A stretch of 15,819 nt of DNA from contig JBFMHD010000051.1 of NCBI GenBank assembly GCA_040752395.1, positions 1 through 15,819 of the forward strand, given 5' to 3'. The notes beneath the pieces are model-generated. The model saw only the letters and a program-made list of their open reading frames with translations, did no database searches and was not told the origin of the DNA. This DNA is from JBFMHD01 sp040752395 [NCBI: Candidatus Hydrogenedentota bacterium]. Its GTDB lineage: Bacteria; JBFMHD01. The position numbers and the translations under genes were made by a program. Positions 1,227-12,321 of the stretch are shown piece by piece; position 1 is the first letter of the stretch, and every line of letters begins with the position of its first letter.

Positions 1227-3746
1227 ATGAAAAAATATTTTATATTAACTTCTATAATAATTTTTTTAGTTAATGCCTCATTATCGGGCCGAATAATTAA
1301 TGCATCACAGGATGACATTATAAAGATTATTGAAAAAGCCAAAAAAGGGGATGTGATAAATCTTAACCCGGGTATCTATAAAACCAATCTTATCTTAAGT
1401 GATGGAATAAGTATCACTTCTATAGATAAGATTAACACTGTTATAGAATCACAAGATACAGAAAAATACAGTATAATTAAATATGGTTCTGGTATAATAG
1501 AAAACATCACAATTATTAACGGGATTTATGCGACTAATTCTGATGCTGTTATACAGAATAACATAATAAAAAATAGTAATCACCACGGGATCCAAACAGC
1601 ATTCTTTAATGGTAAAATAATAAATAATATAATCGAGAACAATAAATTAGATGGTATAAAATGCTATAACTCAAATGCTACAATAACAAATAATGTTATA
1701 AGCTCTAATGAAGATGATGGTATACAGGTTTTACATTCAAGTCTTGTAATAGATTCAAATCTTATTGCTAATAATCGGAACAATGGTGTGGAGTTCTGGT
1801 TTGATGATAAGACCGAGGTGAAAAATAATACTTTTATTCAAAATGAGAATGCTTTTAAATTTATAGTCGGAAATAAGAATGCTAATTTTATAGATAACAC
1901 GGTTAATAATGAAGTAATAAAAGTTATTCCAGATAGAGTTGAACAAGCCAGGGATGAGATAACTAGAGAAAGACAAATAATTCCAAGTTTTATCACTGAT
2001 ACAGAGGGCATTAATGATGCGCTTTATTATATAATGCTTAAGCTAGCTGATTTTAATCTTGACCACCGTATTGAAAAATCCGATATAGACTTACCAGTGT
2101 TTTTAAATCTCTTTTCAAATACTCTGAATACAGGTAAATATATAAAAGGTTTTGCAGATAAATTGTCTGAGACGGTTTGCATAAGTTATAAAATTGATAA
2201 TATCTTATCTATTGATAGTCTTGCACCATTCCGCACGATGGATGCCACGGAATGTCGCGAGATAAAACTACCTAAAAAGTATCCGCTTGAACTGAAAAAT
2301 TATATAAATCAGATATATCAATTAACTGAAATGTATTATGAAGAATACAATAAGGTTAAATCTAAATTAAAAGACGAGGAATGGGATTTTATAAACGATA
2401 AAATAAAACATATCTTTACAGTTAAAAGACCGCTAAGCCTGACTTTAAAAGAAGAACTCAGACAAAAAGATGAGGATGATAAAGAAGAATTAAAATTAAA
2501 AATGTTGTTTGAAAAAATTGATTTAACTAAACTTCAAATCATAGGATATAATATAATTAGAATCGCTGAAAAAATTAAAGAGATAGATTTCTCTAAAATA
2601 AATAATAAGACCAATTTTAATAAAAAAACACCGTTCGGCGAGATAAGGATATGCACAGAAGATAATAACCCCCATCTTAATTCTGATTGTTTTATCTTGA
2701 TTGATATATCAGGTGATGATGTGTATAAAAATAATATTGCAAACTCTAATGAAAATAAACCTGTATCTTTATATTTTGATTTAAAAGGGAATGATAACTA
2801 TACATCAGATAATAATTTTGATATCGCTTCAGCTTACTTTGGCATAAGTTATATTTATGATAAAGAAGGTAATGATAGATATGTAGCCAAAAATAATTCC
2901 ATCGCTGCTGCTTATTTCGGGATGAGTATAATAGATGATAACTCAGGTGATGATTATTATGAATGTAACAACTATGGGATTTCATCTGCGATGTTTGGTG
3001 TTAGCATCCTGCAGGATTTAAATGGTAATGATGTTTATAAAGCAGGAACATATTGCCAGGGTTTTGGACTTACAAAAGGGTATGGTATTATATTTGACAG
3101 AGAAGGGAGTGATAATTATCTGAGCGGCAATACTATGGCTGATGCTATAAGAAATGAGGCGCATAGTATTACTATGAGCCAGGGGTTTGGTTATGGGATA
3201 AGACCTCATATCTCTGGCGGACTCGGTTTGATTATTGATAAATCAGGTAATGATTTATATAAATCAGATGTATTTGGCCAGGGAGGTGCCTATTTTCTTT
3301 CTATTGGTGGTCTTATTGATTACTCAGGTGATGATGATTATATATCTTACAGTTACTCTCAAGGTGCTGGTGTGCATCTTGGTATAGGCGCTCTTATTGA
3401 TATAGCAGGTAATGATGAATACACATCCCATAATGTCTCACAGGGTATGGGGCTTGATATGTCATTTGGTTTACTCTGCGACTTATCCGGTGATGATTTT
3501 TATAAGATCCATGATTTTGGCCAGGCTGCGGGCTATGCAAATGGCATAGGACTATTGATAGAAGAATCAGGCAACGATGCATATTTTGCTTATGGTAAAG
3601 ATACCGGATACGGCGAATATTTCATAGATAGAGAGTTCGGCAGTATAGGTATATTTTACGATAAATCAGGTGATGATACCTATCAAAGAGCTAAAAATAA
3701 TTCTATTCAACGAAAAGATAGATACGGTTTATTTTATGACAAATAA
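1227..3746 (+). CDS. Exported beta-helix protein with C-terminal GNDxY repeat domain
   Basis: 839 residues. Residues 1-20 are a clear signal peptide (MKKYFILTSIIIFLVNASLS). Residues about 25-230 form a right-handed parallel beta-helix of the pectate-lyase/NosD type: repeated short strands with Asn ladders (NNIIKNSNHHGI, NNIIENNKLDGI, NNVISSNEDDGI). Residues about 235-480 are mostly charged and helical, without a recognised domain, and carry two of the four visible luminal-type Cys pairs (C318, C344; C476 and C488 follow). Residues 491-839 hold twelve copies of an xG(N/D)DxY unit. No catalytic motif was seen; a structural, adhesive or glycan-binding surface role is inference. The start is the only sensible ATG, 13 nt after the previous stop, with a weak GGTGAAAA site. 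Its end overlaps the next gene by 11 nt, suggesting coupled translation. Confidence 0.88.
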   Translation: MKKYFILTSIIIFLVNASLSGRIINASQDDIIKIIEKAKKGDVINLNPGIYKTNLILSDGISITSIDKINTVIESQDTEKYSIIKYGSGIIENITIINGIYATNSDAVIQNNIIKNSNHHGIQTAFFNGKIINNIIENNKLDGIKCYNSNATITNNVISSNEDDGIQVLHSSLVIDSNLIANNRNNGVEFWFDDKTEVKNNTFIQNENAFKFIVGNKNANFIDNTVNNEVIKVIPDRVEQARDEITRERQIIPSFITDTEGINDALYYIMLKLADFNLDHRIEKSDIDLPVFLNLFSNTLNTGKYIKGFADKLSETVCISYKIDNILSIDSLAPFRTMDATECREIKLPKKYPLELKNYINQIYQLTEMYYEEYNKVKSKLKDEEWDFINDKIKHIFTVKRPLSLTLKEELRQKDEDDKEELKLKMLFEKIDLTKLQIIGYNIIRIAEKIKEIDFSKINNKTNFNKKTPFGEIRICTEDNNPHLNSDCFILIDISGDDVYKNNIANSNENKPVSLYFDLKGNDNYTSDNNFDIASAYFGISYIYDKEGNDRYVAKNNSIAAAYFGMSIIDDNSGDDYYECNNYGISSAMFGVSILQDLNGNDVYKAGTYCQGFGLTKGYGIIFDREGSDNYLSGNTMADAIRNEAHSITMSQGFGYGIRPHISGGLGLIIDKSGNDLYKSDVFGQGGAYFLSIGGLIDYSGDDDYISYSYSQGAGVHLGIGALIDIAGNDEYTSHNVSQGMGLDMSFGLLCDLSGDDFYKIHDFGQAAGYANGIGLLIEESGNDAYFAYGKDTGYGEYFIDREFGSIGIFYDKSGDDTYQRAKNNSIQRKDRYGLFYDK
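2697..3743 (+). repeat. Twelve-unit protein repeat of about 27 residues (GNDxY repeat)
   Basis: The motif (S/A/E/N/K)G(N/D/S)DxY occurs at residues 495, 520, 547, 573, 599, 626, 673, 700, 727, 754, 781 and 814 of the upstream-defined protein. Spacing is 25-27 residues, exactly 27 from 673 to 781, with two longer gaps (626-673 and 781-814). The late units follow D-x-S-G-(N/D)-D-x-Y, then about six residues, QGxG, four residues, (I/F)GxLI. The protein ends in GLFYDK, the opening of a thirteenth unit. Nucleotide identity between units is low, so this is an old protein repeat, not a recent DNA expansion. Confidence 0.9.
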
Positions 3747-9649: not shown

Positions 9650-10669
9650 ATGAAAACAACAAAAGAATGGAACGACTGGCACTGGCAAATTGCAAATAGT
9701 ATCACAAGCTATAGTCAATTAAAAAAAATAATCAATCTTTCCTGGTTCGAATCCATAAAAACACTACAGATATTGCAAAAACCGCTTCGTATTACACCGT
9801 ATTTTGCAAAACTCATTGATAAAAATAATACCAACGACCCGTTACGTAGAACAGTTGTCCCCTCTATTTTTGAATTCAAAAAAACCAAAGGAGAAAAAAA
9901 AGACCCGCTTGATGAGGAAAAACAAAGTCCAGTAAAAGGGCTTGTTCATCGTTACCCTGATAGGGTACTTCTCTTAACAACATCGCTTTGCGCTACGTAT
10001 TGCAGGTATTGCAATCGCAAAAGACTGGTTGGTAAAAAAAAGGGTTGTTATTTAAGTTTTGCTCAATGTGAAAGAATTTTTGATTATATCAAAAGTAATA
10101 AAAATATAAGAGATGTTTTGTTTTCAGGTGGTGACCCGTTAATACTTGAAGATGAACATCTGGATTATTTGTTAAAAAGAGTAAAGAGTATCCCAAACGT
10201 TGAGGTAATGAGAATCAGCACCAGGATACCTGTTGTGCTACCCTACAGAATTACTCGCTCTCTACTCAAAATATTAAAAAAATATCAGCCGCTCTGGGTG
10301 AATATACATTTTACTCATCCCTGTGAGATCACAGATGAGGTAGAAAAAACCTGCAACAGACTCGCAGATTCCGGGATACCGCTTGGTAGCCAGACCGTGT
10401 TATTAAAAGATATAAATGATAATCCTGAGGTATTAAAAAAATTATTTCATAAACTTGTAAGGCTTCGTGTTAGACCATATTATTTATTTCAATGTGAACG
10501 TGTGATAGGGTCAGCACATTTCAGAACAGAGATTAATAAAGGGCTTGAGATTATTTCTTCGTTAATTGGACATACCTCTGGTTTTGCTGTGCCTGCTTAT
10601 GTTATGGACACACCTCGTGGTAAAGTCCAGTTATTACCAGGATTGAAAAATATAGACCGATTATTATAA
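9650..10669 (+). CDS. KamA-family (lysine 2,3-aminomutase-like) radical SAM, PLP-dependent enzyme
   Basis: 339 residues from ATG 9650; AGGA at 9638-9641 is 8 nt upstream, better placed than for the TTG at 9644. The order of motifs is that of lysine 2,3-aminomutase: WNDWHWQIAN (7-16), LRITPYFAKLID (46-57), DPLRRTVVPS, HRYPDRVLLL, the [4Fe-4S] cluster motif CATYCRYC (C114, C118, C121), SGGDPL (159-164), TRIPVVLPYRIT (191-202), and a C-terminal PLP lysine K325 in MDTPRGKVQLLPG. The Asp pair that holds the substrate amino group in clostridial enzyme (D293, D330) corresponds to E283 and D320 here. It is shorter than typical 400+ residue enzymes, ending soon after the PLP lysine. A lysine, glutamate or protein-lysine aminomutase are all possible; the substrate is unresolved. 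A 6-bp hairpin (CGATTA/TAATCG, 10658-10672) overlaps the stop codon. No partner acetyltransferase is adjacent. Confidence 0.9.
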   Translation: MKTTKEWNDWHWQIANSITSYSQLKKIINLSWFESIKTLQILQKPLRITPYFAKLIDKNNTNDPLRRTVVPSIFEFKKTKGEKKDPLDEEKQSPVKGLVHRYPDRVLLLTTSLCATYCRYCNRKRLVGKKKGCYLSFAQCERIFDYIKSNKNIRDVLFSGGDPLILEDEHLDYLLKRVKSIPNVEVMRISTRIPVVLPYRITRSLLKILKKYQPLWVNIHFTHPCEITDEVEKTCNRLADSGIPLGSQTVLLKDINDNPEVLKKLFHKLVRLRVRPYYLFQCERVIGSAHFRTEINKGLEIISSLIGHTSGFAVPAYVMDTPRGKVQLLPGLKNIDRLL

Positions 10670-10681
10670 TCGTGGATATTA

Positions 10682-10818
10682 TTAGGTGCGTAAAATCTAA
10701 TATTCTGACTGTAAAAAAATCGAAAATAATCTTGATATTTAATAAAAAATGGCATATAATTAATTGAAAGGATTTAAGGAAATTTTATGGGTAAAGTTTT
10801 TGAGAAAATAAAAATACA
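10682..10818 (+). repeat. Direct repeat, copy 1: promoter/leader and first codons of protease gene 1
   Basis: Matches 11268-11404 at a constant offset of 586 nt without gaps. In the 105 non-coding bases there are only three differences (10710 T/C, 10725 A/G, 10739 T/C), and the first 32 coding bases are identical. Similarity then falls sharply at 10819. Confidence 0.97.
10732..10760 (+). promoter_or_regulatory. Sigma70-type promoter of protease gene 1
   Basis: TTGATA (10732-10737), a 17-nt spacer and a perfect TATAAT (10755-10760). The start point would be near 10767, leaving a leader of about 20 nt that carries AAGGA at 10776-10780, 6 nt before the ATG. Confidence 0.8.
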
Positions 10819-11206
10819 GAATTATGAGGATATTATTCGCGCAAAGGATGGTAGATTGGATAAAAGTAAAATTCGGCAGATTGAGGTCGAGGGATTGGTT
10901 GATACCGGAGCAACGTTATTGCAATTACCAAAAAATATAGTTGATAATTTAGGATTAGAGGTTTACAGGGAAGTTACTGCCACTTATGCTAATGGGAAAA
11001 AAGAGATAAAAGGGGTAGCTGGCGGGATCAGACTTGAAATTCTCGGTCGTCAGGCTGAAGTGGAGTGTATTGTTGAGGAAGAAGGGACAAATGTATTAAT
11101 CGGACAGATACCATTAGAAGCAATGGATTTAGTTGTTGATTGCCGTACTAATAAATTAGGACCTCGGCCTGAATCGCCAGATATGGCTATGATAGATATG
11201 TTCTAA
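10787..11206 (+). CDS. Retropepsin-like (clan AA) aspartic protease, copy 1
   Basis: 139 residues. The catalytic signature is VDTGAT with D39, T40, G41 followed by LLQLP, typical of single-domain retropepsin-like proteases that work as homodimers. A flap-like segment (ATYANGKKE, about 66-74) and the second-strand block VLIGQIPLEAMDLVVD complete the fold. No signal peptide or membrane segment is present, so it is probably cytoplasmic. The C-terminal tail LGPRPESPDMAMIDMF is acidic, Met-rich and identical in copy 2. Cellular prokaryotic members of this clan have poorly known substrates; there is no reverse transcriptase or other retroelement gene nearby. A strong own promoter lies upstream. It could alternatively be a non-peptidase binding protein, but the DTGA motif is intact. 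Confidence 0.88.
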   Translation: MGKVFEKIKIQNYEDIIRAKDGRLDKSKIRQIEVEGLVDTGATLLQLPKNIVDNLGLEVYREVTATYANGKKEIKGVAGGIRLEILGRQAEVECIVEEEGTNVLIGQIPLEAMDLVVDCRTNKLGPRPESPDMAMIDMF

Positions 11207-11267
11207 TGTTTATTGACCACTGTTTATGCCACCGAAACCCAGAACATTGAGGATATAGCGAGCACCT

Positions 11268-11404
11268 TTAGGTGCGTAAAATCTAATATTCTGACCGTAA
11301 AAAAATCGAAGATAATCTTGATATCTAATAAAAAATGGCATATAATTAATTGAAAGGATTTAAGGAAATTTTATGGGTAAAGTTTTTGAGAAAATAAAAA
11401 TACA
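11268..11404 (+). repeat. Direct repeat, copy 2: promoter/leader and first codons of protease gene 2
   Basis: Second copy of the 137-nt repeat that begins at 10682. Its left edge lies in a short hairpin, GCACC (11262-11266), loop TTTA, GGTGC (11271-11275), whose left arm is missing at copy 1. The 61 bases between gene 1 and this edge match nothing else I can see in the window. Confidence 0.97.
11318..11346 (+). promoter_or_regulatory. Sigma70-type promoter of protease gene 2
   Basis: TTGATA (11318-11323), a 17-nt spacer and TATAAT (11341-11346), unchanged from copy 1. AAGGA at 11362-11366 is 6 nt before the ATG. None of the three leader differences touches the -35, the -10 or the ribosome-binding site. 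Confidence 0.8.
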
Positions 11405-11792
11405 AAATTTAGAAGATATTTTTTTATCAGAAAAAGGATATATTCTTAAAGATAAAATTAGAGAAATTGAGGTCGAAGGTCTTGTCGATACTGGTGCAAC
11501 CTTACTACAATTGCCTAAAGATATTGTTGATAAATTAGGATTAAAAATTTACAGGGAAGTTACTGCCACTTATGCTGATGGCCGAAAACAAAAAAAGAGT
11601 GTGGCAAGAGGGCTTTTAATTGAAATTCTCGGTCGTCAGGCTGAAGTAGAATGCATTGTAGAACCAGAAGGGTCGCAGGTACTGATCGGTCAAATCCCTC
11701 TGGAGGCGATGGATCTGGTTGTTGACTGCAGAACGAATAAATTGGGTCCGCGACCAGAATCGCCTGATATGGCTATGATAGATATGTTCTAA
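11373..11792 (+). CDS. Retropepsin-like (clan AA) aspartic protease, copy 2
   Basis: 139 residues, the same length as copy 1 and about 80% identical in protein (27 differences by my count). VDTGAT is intact with D39. Differences cluster at residues 13-31, just before the catalytic strand, and at 66-84, the presumed flap region, where substrate contact would be expected. From VLIG to the C-terminus (37 codons) the protein is identical although 18 codons differ silently, so this part is under strong protein-level constraint. If the active form is a dimer, the two copies could form a heterodimer; that is inference. No terminator is evident before the inverted-repeat element that follows. Confidence 0.88.
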   Translation: MGKVFEKIKIQNLEDIFLSEKGYILKDKIREIEVEGLVDTGATLLQLPKDIVDKLGLKIYREVTATYADGRKQKKSVARGLLIEILGRQAEVECIVEPEGSQVLIGQIPLEAMDLVVDCRTNKLGPRPESPDMAMIDMF

Positions 11793-11810: not shown

Positions 11811-11943
11811 GAGATCTCTTTTAAACCCTATCTCGCTTATGGGTTACAAAGTGACAAAGGCAAAAGAGACACAAAGGAATATAAAAAACCTCAAAAACTT
11901 TGTGCCTTTGTGCCTTAAAAAAACGACTTTTAAAAGAGACCTC
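11811..11943. repeat. Nested inverted-repeat element (MITE/REP-like)
   Basis: Outer arms GAGATCTCTTTTAAA (11811-11825) and TTTAAAAGAGACCTC (11929-11943) pair at 14 of 15 positions. Inner arms, AAGGCAAAAGAGACACAAAG (11857-11876) and CTTTGTGCCTTTGTGCCTT (11899-11917), are imperfect complements built from a CTTTGTGC word. The loop is an A-rich 22 nt. No coding capacity for a transposase. It lies where the 5' half of the following protease remnant should be. Confidence 0.6.
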
Positions 11944-12136
11944 TGGAGAGATTATTGAGCGAGATTATGGTATCGCTTGTTTTGTGATTGATGGTATAGG
12001 TAAGGGTGGTTCAGATGTTATCTTTGGTGAGGAGACTGCTGCTGAATTATTAGGATTGCTTACACTTGAAAGTATGGCATTAACTGTAGATACAAAAACA
12101 GGTGAATTAAAACCAATAGAATTGTTTTTATTATAG
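11944..12136 (+). pseudogene. 5'-truncated clan AA aspartic protease remnant
   Basis: From about codon GEIIERDYGIACFVIDG the frame encodes the C-terminal half of a retropepsin-like protease: DVIFGEETAAELLGLLTLE, then LESMALTVDTKTGELKP, which aligns with LEAMDLVVDCRTNKLGP of the two intact copies. The catalytic DTGA strand and everything before it are missing in all forward frames upstream. The TTG at 11900 would start the frame inside the inverted repeat and gives a nonsense N-terminus (MCLCALKKRLLKET), with no convincing ribosome-binding site. The copy is diverged and has a different tail (ELKPIELFLL), so it comes from another subfamily rather than a recent duplicate. A short, expressed regulatory fragment cannot be excluded. 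Confidence 0.7.
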
Positions 12137-12321
12137 AATTTTTGGGTGTCCTATTAGATTCTTATATTGTGAGATCTGTGCAATTCGAGCAGAATTTTAA
12201 CTTAACTACCTTGTGTCAAAAGTCCTCAAATAGAAGTTTGGTTGGTGGCACTGCCACCTTAGGCTTTATAAGTATGGGAGTTTACATAATATCATATAAA
12301 AAAAATTTTTGAAATTAATAC

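What the first reader, a model, noticed from the sequence alone, without database searches (positions are those of the whole stretch)
10682..11404. Protease gene pair whose promoters/leaders are far more alike than the coding regions
Seen: 105 non-coding bases differ at 3 sites and the first 32 coding bases at none, yet the last 37 sense codons before the stop differ silently at 18 while coding the same protein. Non-coding DNA evolving more slowly than synonymous sites means either recent gene conversion of the leader or strong constraint on a regulatory element, possibly binding a shared regulator or small RNA beyond the plain -35/-10.
Basis: seen in the sequence. Interest (0 to 1): 0.6.

Follow-up and report, generated by a model that had tools for sequence, protein, structure and literature searches.

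The report
Tandem protease genes with homogenised leader
Two neighbouring bacterial genes for a retrovirus-like protease share an almost identical start region although the rest of their DNA has drifted far apart, most likely because one copy's start was recently pasted over the other's; this is a known kind of event, with an unusually strictly kept protein tail as the odd detail.

Summary
Leaders 10682-10786 and 11268-11372 differ at 3 of 105 bases, the first 32 coding bases are identical, and the last 37 sense codons differ silently at 18 with no amino-acid change. Both genes encode 139-aa clan AA (retropepsin-like) aspartic proteases, 81% identical. They are sister paralogs (support 0.972); the nearest relative found is about 58% identical. 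Silent sites are saturated over codons 92-131 (13 of 36 same-residue codons identical, 14.2 expected by chance). Three short coding islands are completely identical (22 of 22, 9.6 expected), though they lie in weakly conserved protein parts; the two central ones show no raised silent identity across 33 family members. Leader identity ends abruptly upstream. No Rfam family or stable leader fold supports a regulatory RNA. Best reading: recent gene conversion of leader and 5' end, perhaps plus short coding tracts, over an old tandem duplication. A shared-regulator explanation is less likely but not excluded. Unexplained: no amino-acid change in 37 C-terminal residues despite heavy silent change. 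No own genome or close strain was available, so a third-copy test could not be run.

The parts
10682..10786 (+). leader of copy 1: promoter-like site and 5' untranslated region, the repeated non-coding unit
   Evidence: 3 of 105 bases differ from 11268-11372; -35 TTGATA / 17 / -10 TATAAT at 10732-10760
10787..11206 (+). copy 1: 139-aa clan AA aspartic protease, DTGA at residues 39-42
   Evidence: ORF; PF13975 E 1.3e-7 over its cut-off; TIGR03698 46.1 bits, under its cut-off
10740..10818 (+). longest exact run (79 bases): -10, 5' UTR, ribosome-binding site, start and first 32 coding bases; partner 11326-11404
10962..10990 (+). identical coding island 1 (29 bases), partner 11548-11576
11034..11061 (+). 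identical coding island 2 (28 bases), partner 11620-11647
11180..11206 (+). identical coding island 3 (27 bases, to the stop codon), partner 11766-11792
11207..11267 (+). spacer between copy 1 and the second leader; no clear relation to the DNA after copy 2
   Evidence: best ungapped match 25 of 61
11268..11372 (+). leader of copy 2
11373..11792 (+). copy 2: 139-aa clan AA aspartic protease
   Evidence: ORF; PF13975 E 1.1e-7 over its cut-off; TIGR03698 57.6 bits, just over the cut-off of 57.35
11930..12138 (+). probable 3' relic of a third, different clan AA protease gene (about 65 C-terminal residues)
   Evidence: tblastn to protease loci, best E 2.2e-10, 47.6% over 63 residues; no Pfam or NCBIfam match up to E 10

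Best explanation
An old tandem duplication of a retropepsin-like protease gene, each copy with its own promoter, in which the leader and 5' end (about 137 bases), and probably a few 27-29 base coding tracts, were recently homogenised by gene conversion between the neighbours. The tract runs up to the limit of detectable homology at 10682/11268 and ends near codon 11. Shown: the mosaic of identity, silent saturation in the diverged part, and the sister relationship of the copies. Inferred: that homologous recombination made the tracts, the direction of copying, and that both copies are expressed from the same sigma-70-like promoter.
For: Leader distance 0.029 versus dS 1.45 or saturated in coding parts. 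Same-residue degenerate codons identical: 13 of 36 in codons 92-131 (14.2 expected at saturation) but 9 of 9, 8 of 8 and 5 of 5 in codons 59-68, 84-91 and 132-139 (3.8, 3.2, 2.6 expected). Clustering of identical codons (sum of squared run lengths) beats shuffles at P 0.002-0.006. Three long base runs: sum reached in 0.0002 of saturated simulations and 0.0036 of codon-column permutations. Islands are weakly conserved protein parts: mean share of homologues with copy 2's residue 0.29, 0.32 and 0.17. Over 33 members silent identity in islands 1 and 2 is 0.317 and 0.300, against 0.334-0.343 in the diverged parts. The window pair is monophyletic, 0.972.
Against: No third sequence close enough for a phylogenetic conversion test. 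The single longest run is not significant under codon-column permutation (P 0.13), and the runs count for codons 12-139 is not either (P 0.08 and 0.07). Codons 2-12 (0.396) and 132-139 (0.426) have somewhat raised silent identity across the family, so start and tail identity may partly reflect constraint. The three leader differences all lie at or upstream of 10739, so the core promoter to codon 11 is the perfectly kept part, which constraint would also give. Bases next to the start are also fully kept between orthologues of G102 and G103 (20 of 20).
Confidence: 0.66

Rival explanations
1. Strong constraint: the whole 105-base leader binds a shared regulator or small RNA and is kept by selection while the coding parts drift.
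For: The perfectly kept run covers -10, UTR, ribosome-binding site and start; orthologues in G102 and G103 keep 20 of 20 bases before the start.
Against: It would need nearly every base constrained, including 28 identical bases (10682-10709) upstream of the -35. Rfam matches only a tRNA in the window; the two leaders fold worse than shuffles, z +1.75 and +1.80. No listed match in 45 genomes covers more than about 60 of the 137 bases. An orthologue pair with 393 of 414 coding bases identical shares only 24 of 60 upstream bases, and the tandem pair of G469 shares 17 of 60. It does not explain the coding islands.
Confidence: 0.15
2. The shared leader is simply recent and the coding 3' part of copy 2 is foreign: copy 2 recombined with a diverged homologue (horizontal transfer), leaving a chimera.
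For: Copy 2 is a compositional mosaic: third-position G+C 7 of 58 in codons 1-58 but 18 of 39 in codons 93-131 (P 0.0003); copy 1 shows no such shift (P 0.64) (test chosen after seeing the data). Relatives are found in a minority of genomes in each of several phyla.
Against: The donor would have to encode the same 37 C-terminal residues; the closest relative found differs at 16 of 37. Islands inside the diverged part need extra events.
Confidence: 0.14
3. Assembly artefact: an assembler joined strain variants through the exact 79-base run.
For: No whole genome is held for the window; the exact run could exceed an assembler's k-mer.
Against: The two leaders differ at three sites and have different flanks, and both reading frames are intact.
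Confidence: 0.05

Closest known systems
Gene conversion (concerted evolution) between tandem paralogs
   Same: Sharp tract of near identity inside an otherwise diverged tandem pair
   Different: Tract covers mainly promoter and 5' end; formal third-copy test lacking. The process is known from general knowledge; a preprint on gene conversion in a bacterium was seen in a search listing only (PMC13061034)
NCBIfam TIGR03698 clan_AA_DTGF / Pfam PF13975 gag-asp_proteas
   Same: DTGA motif and domain match in both copies
   Different: Copy 1 scores under the TIGR03698 cut-off; the models cover about residues 29-124 only, while the relatives share segments outside it
Bacterial retropepsin-like proteases (RimB, RloA; Rickettsia APRc)
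   Same: Single-domain DTG protease; RloA forms dimers with the active site at the interface (PMC12239564, passages)
   Different: Sequence match to APRc structures is not significant (E 0.055); RimB and RloA were not compared here

Membership tests
Clan AA (retropepsin-like) aspartic protease | D-T/S-G catalytic motif in the expected domain | tested here: met
   D39 T40 G41 in both copies; D39 in 30 of 31 and G41 in 29 of 31 homologues; PF13975 above cut-off in both
Clan AA (retropepsin-like) aspartic protease | retropepsin fold and homodimer | tested here: inconclusive
   AlphaFold2 on an alignment of the two window proteins gave mean pLDDT 46.4; no dimer test possible
TIGR03698 clan_AA_DTGF | score over curated cut-off 57.35 bits | tested here: inconclusive
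   copy 2 57.6 bits, copy 1 46.1 bits
Gene conversion tract | identity far above the background of the same pair, with sharp edges | tested here: met
Gene conversion tract | identity not explained by protein constraint | tested here: met
   islands in weakly conserved segments; no raised silent identity in islands 1 and 2 across the family, though raised in the start and tail
Gene conversion tract | tree conflict between tract and flank using a third copy or strain | not testable with these tools
   no own genome; nearest relative found about 58% identical
Known regulatory RNA element | match to a curated RNA family or stable structure | tested here: not met
   only a tRNA in the window at gathering scores; leader z-scores +1.75 and +1.80

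The most novel reading that the evidence does not exclude
The two genes encode protomers that must pair: the identical first 12 residues and unchanging 37-residue tail form a shared dimer interface, while the middle, including the likely flap region, diverged to make an asymmetric heterodimeric retropepsin whose equal dosage is kept by a common, conversion-maintained promoter.
Probability: 0.1. Interest if true: 0.6.

Novelty: new member of a known kind. Interest (0 to 1): 0.27.

Why it matters
It is a small, readable example of partial concerted evolution in bacteria, where a promoter and start region are homogenised while the bodies of the genes diverge. If the unchanging C-terminal tail reflects paired function, it would point to heterodimeric retropepsin-like enzymes in bacteria, which could be tested directly with the two proteins. 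The one paper looked into on bacterial retropepsins (PMC12239564, passages) holds the word heterodimer 0 times; that is not a literature survey.

Tried and rejected
Further copies of the 137-base repeat in the own genome could not be sought because none is held. Protein-based scans with the protease found no relative in genome contigs or viral contigs. The neighbouring aminomutase found none in viral contigs and 32 loci in genome contigs, 55% at best; 22 of these 32 were used as entry points to whole genomes (0 of 22 with a match). Plasmid records gave 7 of 72,556 with a distant match, all Synechocystis, about 30% identical; phage records none.

A dispersed mobile element was considered and dropped: no DNA match in plasmids or phages at E 0.01. 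In 45 of the 89 genomes with a protease match, 43 gave matches to the 137-base unit at E up to 1, but those listed are short pieces (best E 4.1e-4, 40.1 bits, 37 of 137 bases; up to about 60 bases at 73%); at most 19 candidates per genome were scored and the list was cut. An antisense 43-aa ORF over leader 2 and spacer (11341-11210) was considered: no Pfam match, and all three leader differences change its residues in the copy 1 frame, so it is not taken as a gene. The promoter-like match on island 1 was set aside: 8 such sites found in the region, 5.5 expected. The structure model was too poor to use, so no fold search was run. PHROGs gave nothing up to E 0.1; PADLOC gave only weak matches to peptidase models, best E 3.8e-4.

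Paper searches, listings only: retropepsins in bacteria, gene conversion in bacterial paralogs; none of the listed titles treats conversion of bacterial leader regions. TIGR03698 is named in no held paper. One paper was looked into by passages.

Full report
Observation. The two copies align without gaps at an offset of 586 bases. The non-coding leaders 10682-10786 and 11268-11372 differ at 3 of 105 bases and the first 32 coding bases not at all; the last 37 sense codons differ at 18, all silently. The pattern is a mosaic, though: besides the leader run of 79 exact bases there are exact coding runs of 29, 28 and 27 bases, and upstream of 10682 the similarity drops to 13 of 62.

What the genes are. 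Each encodes 139 residues with a DTGA motif, 81% identical, matching PF13975 in both and TIGR03698 just over its cut-off in copy 2 only. Upstream is a KamA-family (lysine-2,3-aminomutase-like) radical SAM gene ending at 10669. A sigma-70-like site TTGATA-17-TATAAT sits at the same place in both leaders (8 promoter-like sites in the region, 5.5 expected in shuffles). After copy 2, 11930-12138 encodes what looks like the C-terminal part of a third protease of a different subfamily (best E 2.2e-10; missed by Pfam and NCBIfam).

Relatives. Searches with a profile of the two proteins gave a match in 0 of 22 genomes, 8 of 82, 13 of 247, 5 of 117, 24 of 247 and 27 of 345; the broader TIGR03698 model in 12 of 46. 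Searches (3 of 106; 1 of 2; 1 of 1) added no closer relative. The closest is in G526, about 58% identical to copy 2. From 41 homologous proteins extracted, 31 that were complete, of 110-185 residues and of at least 60 bits went into the alignment with the two window proteins; 10 were left out. In the tree the window copies are sisters (0.972) and G526 is next (0.912); copy 1 has the longer branch. Other neighbouring protease pairs seen: G469 C41, G381 C15, and a second G469 locus with two matches to the relic (L092).

Divergence along the pair. dS is 1.45 for codons 12-139 and beyond estimation in codons 93-131, while dN there is 0.07. With the window's codon usage, codons 92-131 have as many identical same-residue codons as chance (13 of 36, 14.2 expected); codons 12-58 have somewhat more (19 of 33, 13.8 expected). 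Codons 59-68, 84-91 and 132-139 have all of theirs identical (9 of 9, 8 of 8, 5 of 5; 3.8, 3.2 and 2.6 expected). Shuffle tests give P 0.002-0.006 for clustering of identical codons, 0.006-0.03 for the longest codon run, but 0.04-0.08 for the runs count. For exact base runs, codon-column permutation gives 0.13 for the longest, 0.001 for the third longest and 0.0036 for the sum of three; simulation at saturation gives 0.0088, 0 of 5000 and 0.0002.

Is it constraint? The islands are not strongly conserved protein parts: the mean share of homologues with copy 2's residue is 0.29, 0.32 and 0.17. Other segments are as low (0.23 in 69-83, 0.28 in 93-102), but the best kept, 103-131 (0.47), is where silent sites are scrambled. 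Over all pairs of 33 family members except three close pairs (the window pair among them), silent identity is 0.317 and 0.300 in the two central islands, 0.335, 0.334 and 0.343 in the diverged parts, and raised in codons 2-12 (0.396) and the tail (0.426). So start and tail may carry some constraint; the central islands show none.

Leaders elsewhere. G495 and a G469 copy have 393 of 414 coding bases alike but 24 of 60 upstream; the G469 pair shares 17 of 60 upstream. In the orthologues of G102 and G103, 357 of 381 coding bases, 20 of 20 bases before the start and 39 of 60 (ungapped) are alike. These relatives are distant, so they say little about this leader itself. The leader RNA has no stable fold and no Rfam match. 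In 45 genomes with relatives, 43 had matches to the 137-base unit at E up to 1, but those listed are short A+T-rich pieces, best 40.1 bits.

Conclusion on mechanism. Gene conversion between the tandem copies, covering the leader to about codon 11 and perhaps three short coding tracts, is the simplest account. Direction and machinery are inferred. The rival in which the 3' part of copy 2 came from a diverged relative gains some weight from its third-position G+C shift (7 of 58 to 18 of 39, P 0.0003), a test chosen after seeing the data. On checking, confidence in conversion was set at 0.66 instead of 0.68 because bases next to the start are also fully kept in one orthologue pair.

What stays odd. 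Between the copies 27 of 90 residues differ in 13-102 and 0 of 37 in 103-139, whereas copy 2 differs from G526 at 37 of 90 and 16 of 37 (P 0.0008). Changed codons are 23 silent and 27 replacement in 12-102, 18 and 0 in 103-139 (P 0.00003). The tail has thus been kept more strictly since the duplication than over the longer split. Bacterial RloA enzymes are dimers with the active site at the interface, and in HIV protease strands from both termini build the interface sheet; in RloA, however, these strands do not interdigitate (PMC12239564, passages). A shared interface kept for pairing is therefore possible but speculative, and the structure model was too poor to help.

Verdict. A real and correctly measured pattern with a probable ordinary cause; low to moderate interest, raised a little by the unchanging tail.

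Noticed in passing
window 11930-12138 (+): Probable C-terminal relic of a third clan AA protease of another subfamily directly behind the pair.
   Followed up: partly
window 11262-11275: Small hairpin GCACC-TTTA-GGTGC at the left edge of leader 2; only its right half lies in the repeat, so copy 1 lacks it.
   Followed up: no
window 11210-11341 (-): Antisense ORF of 43 codons across leader 2 and spacer with a protein-like look; no Pfam match, and the three leader differences change its residues in copy 1.
   Followed up: partly
window 2702-3693 (+): Beta-helix protein gene 1227-3746 holds five copies of a 35-base repeat that spell repeated D-x-S-G-x-D-x-Y-like peptides.
   Followed up: no
L001 2501-2911: In a Synechocystis plasmid a distantly related protease gene sits inside a type III-B CRISPR (Cmr) gene cluster, on the opposite strand to its neighbours; copy 2 also matches weakly (E 6.5e-4) a PADLOC model of an aspartyl protease in type III operons of Sulfolobales.
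   Followed up: no
L075 17-2048: A close relative of a G469 copy (131 of 138 residues) lies about 800 bases from two ORFs that look like IS21-type istA/istB (named from recall).
   Followed up: no
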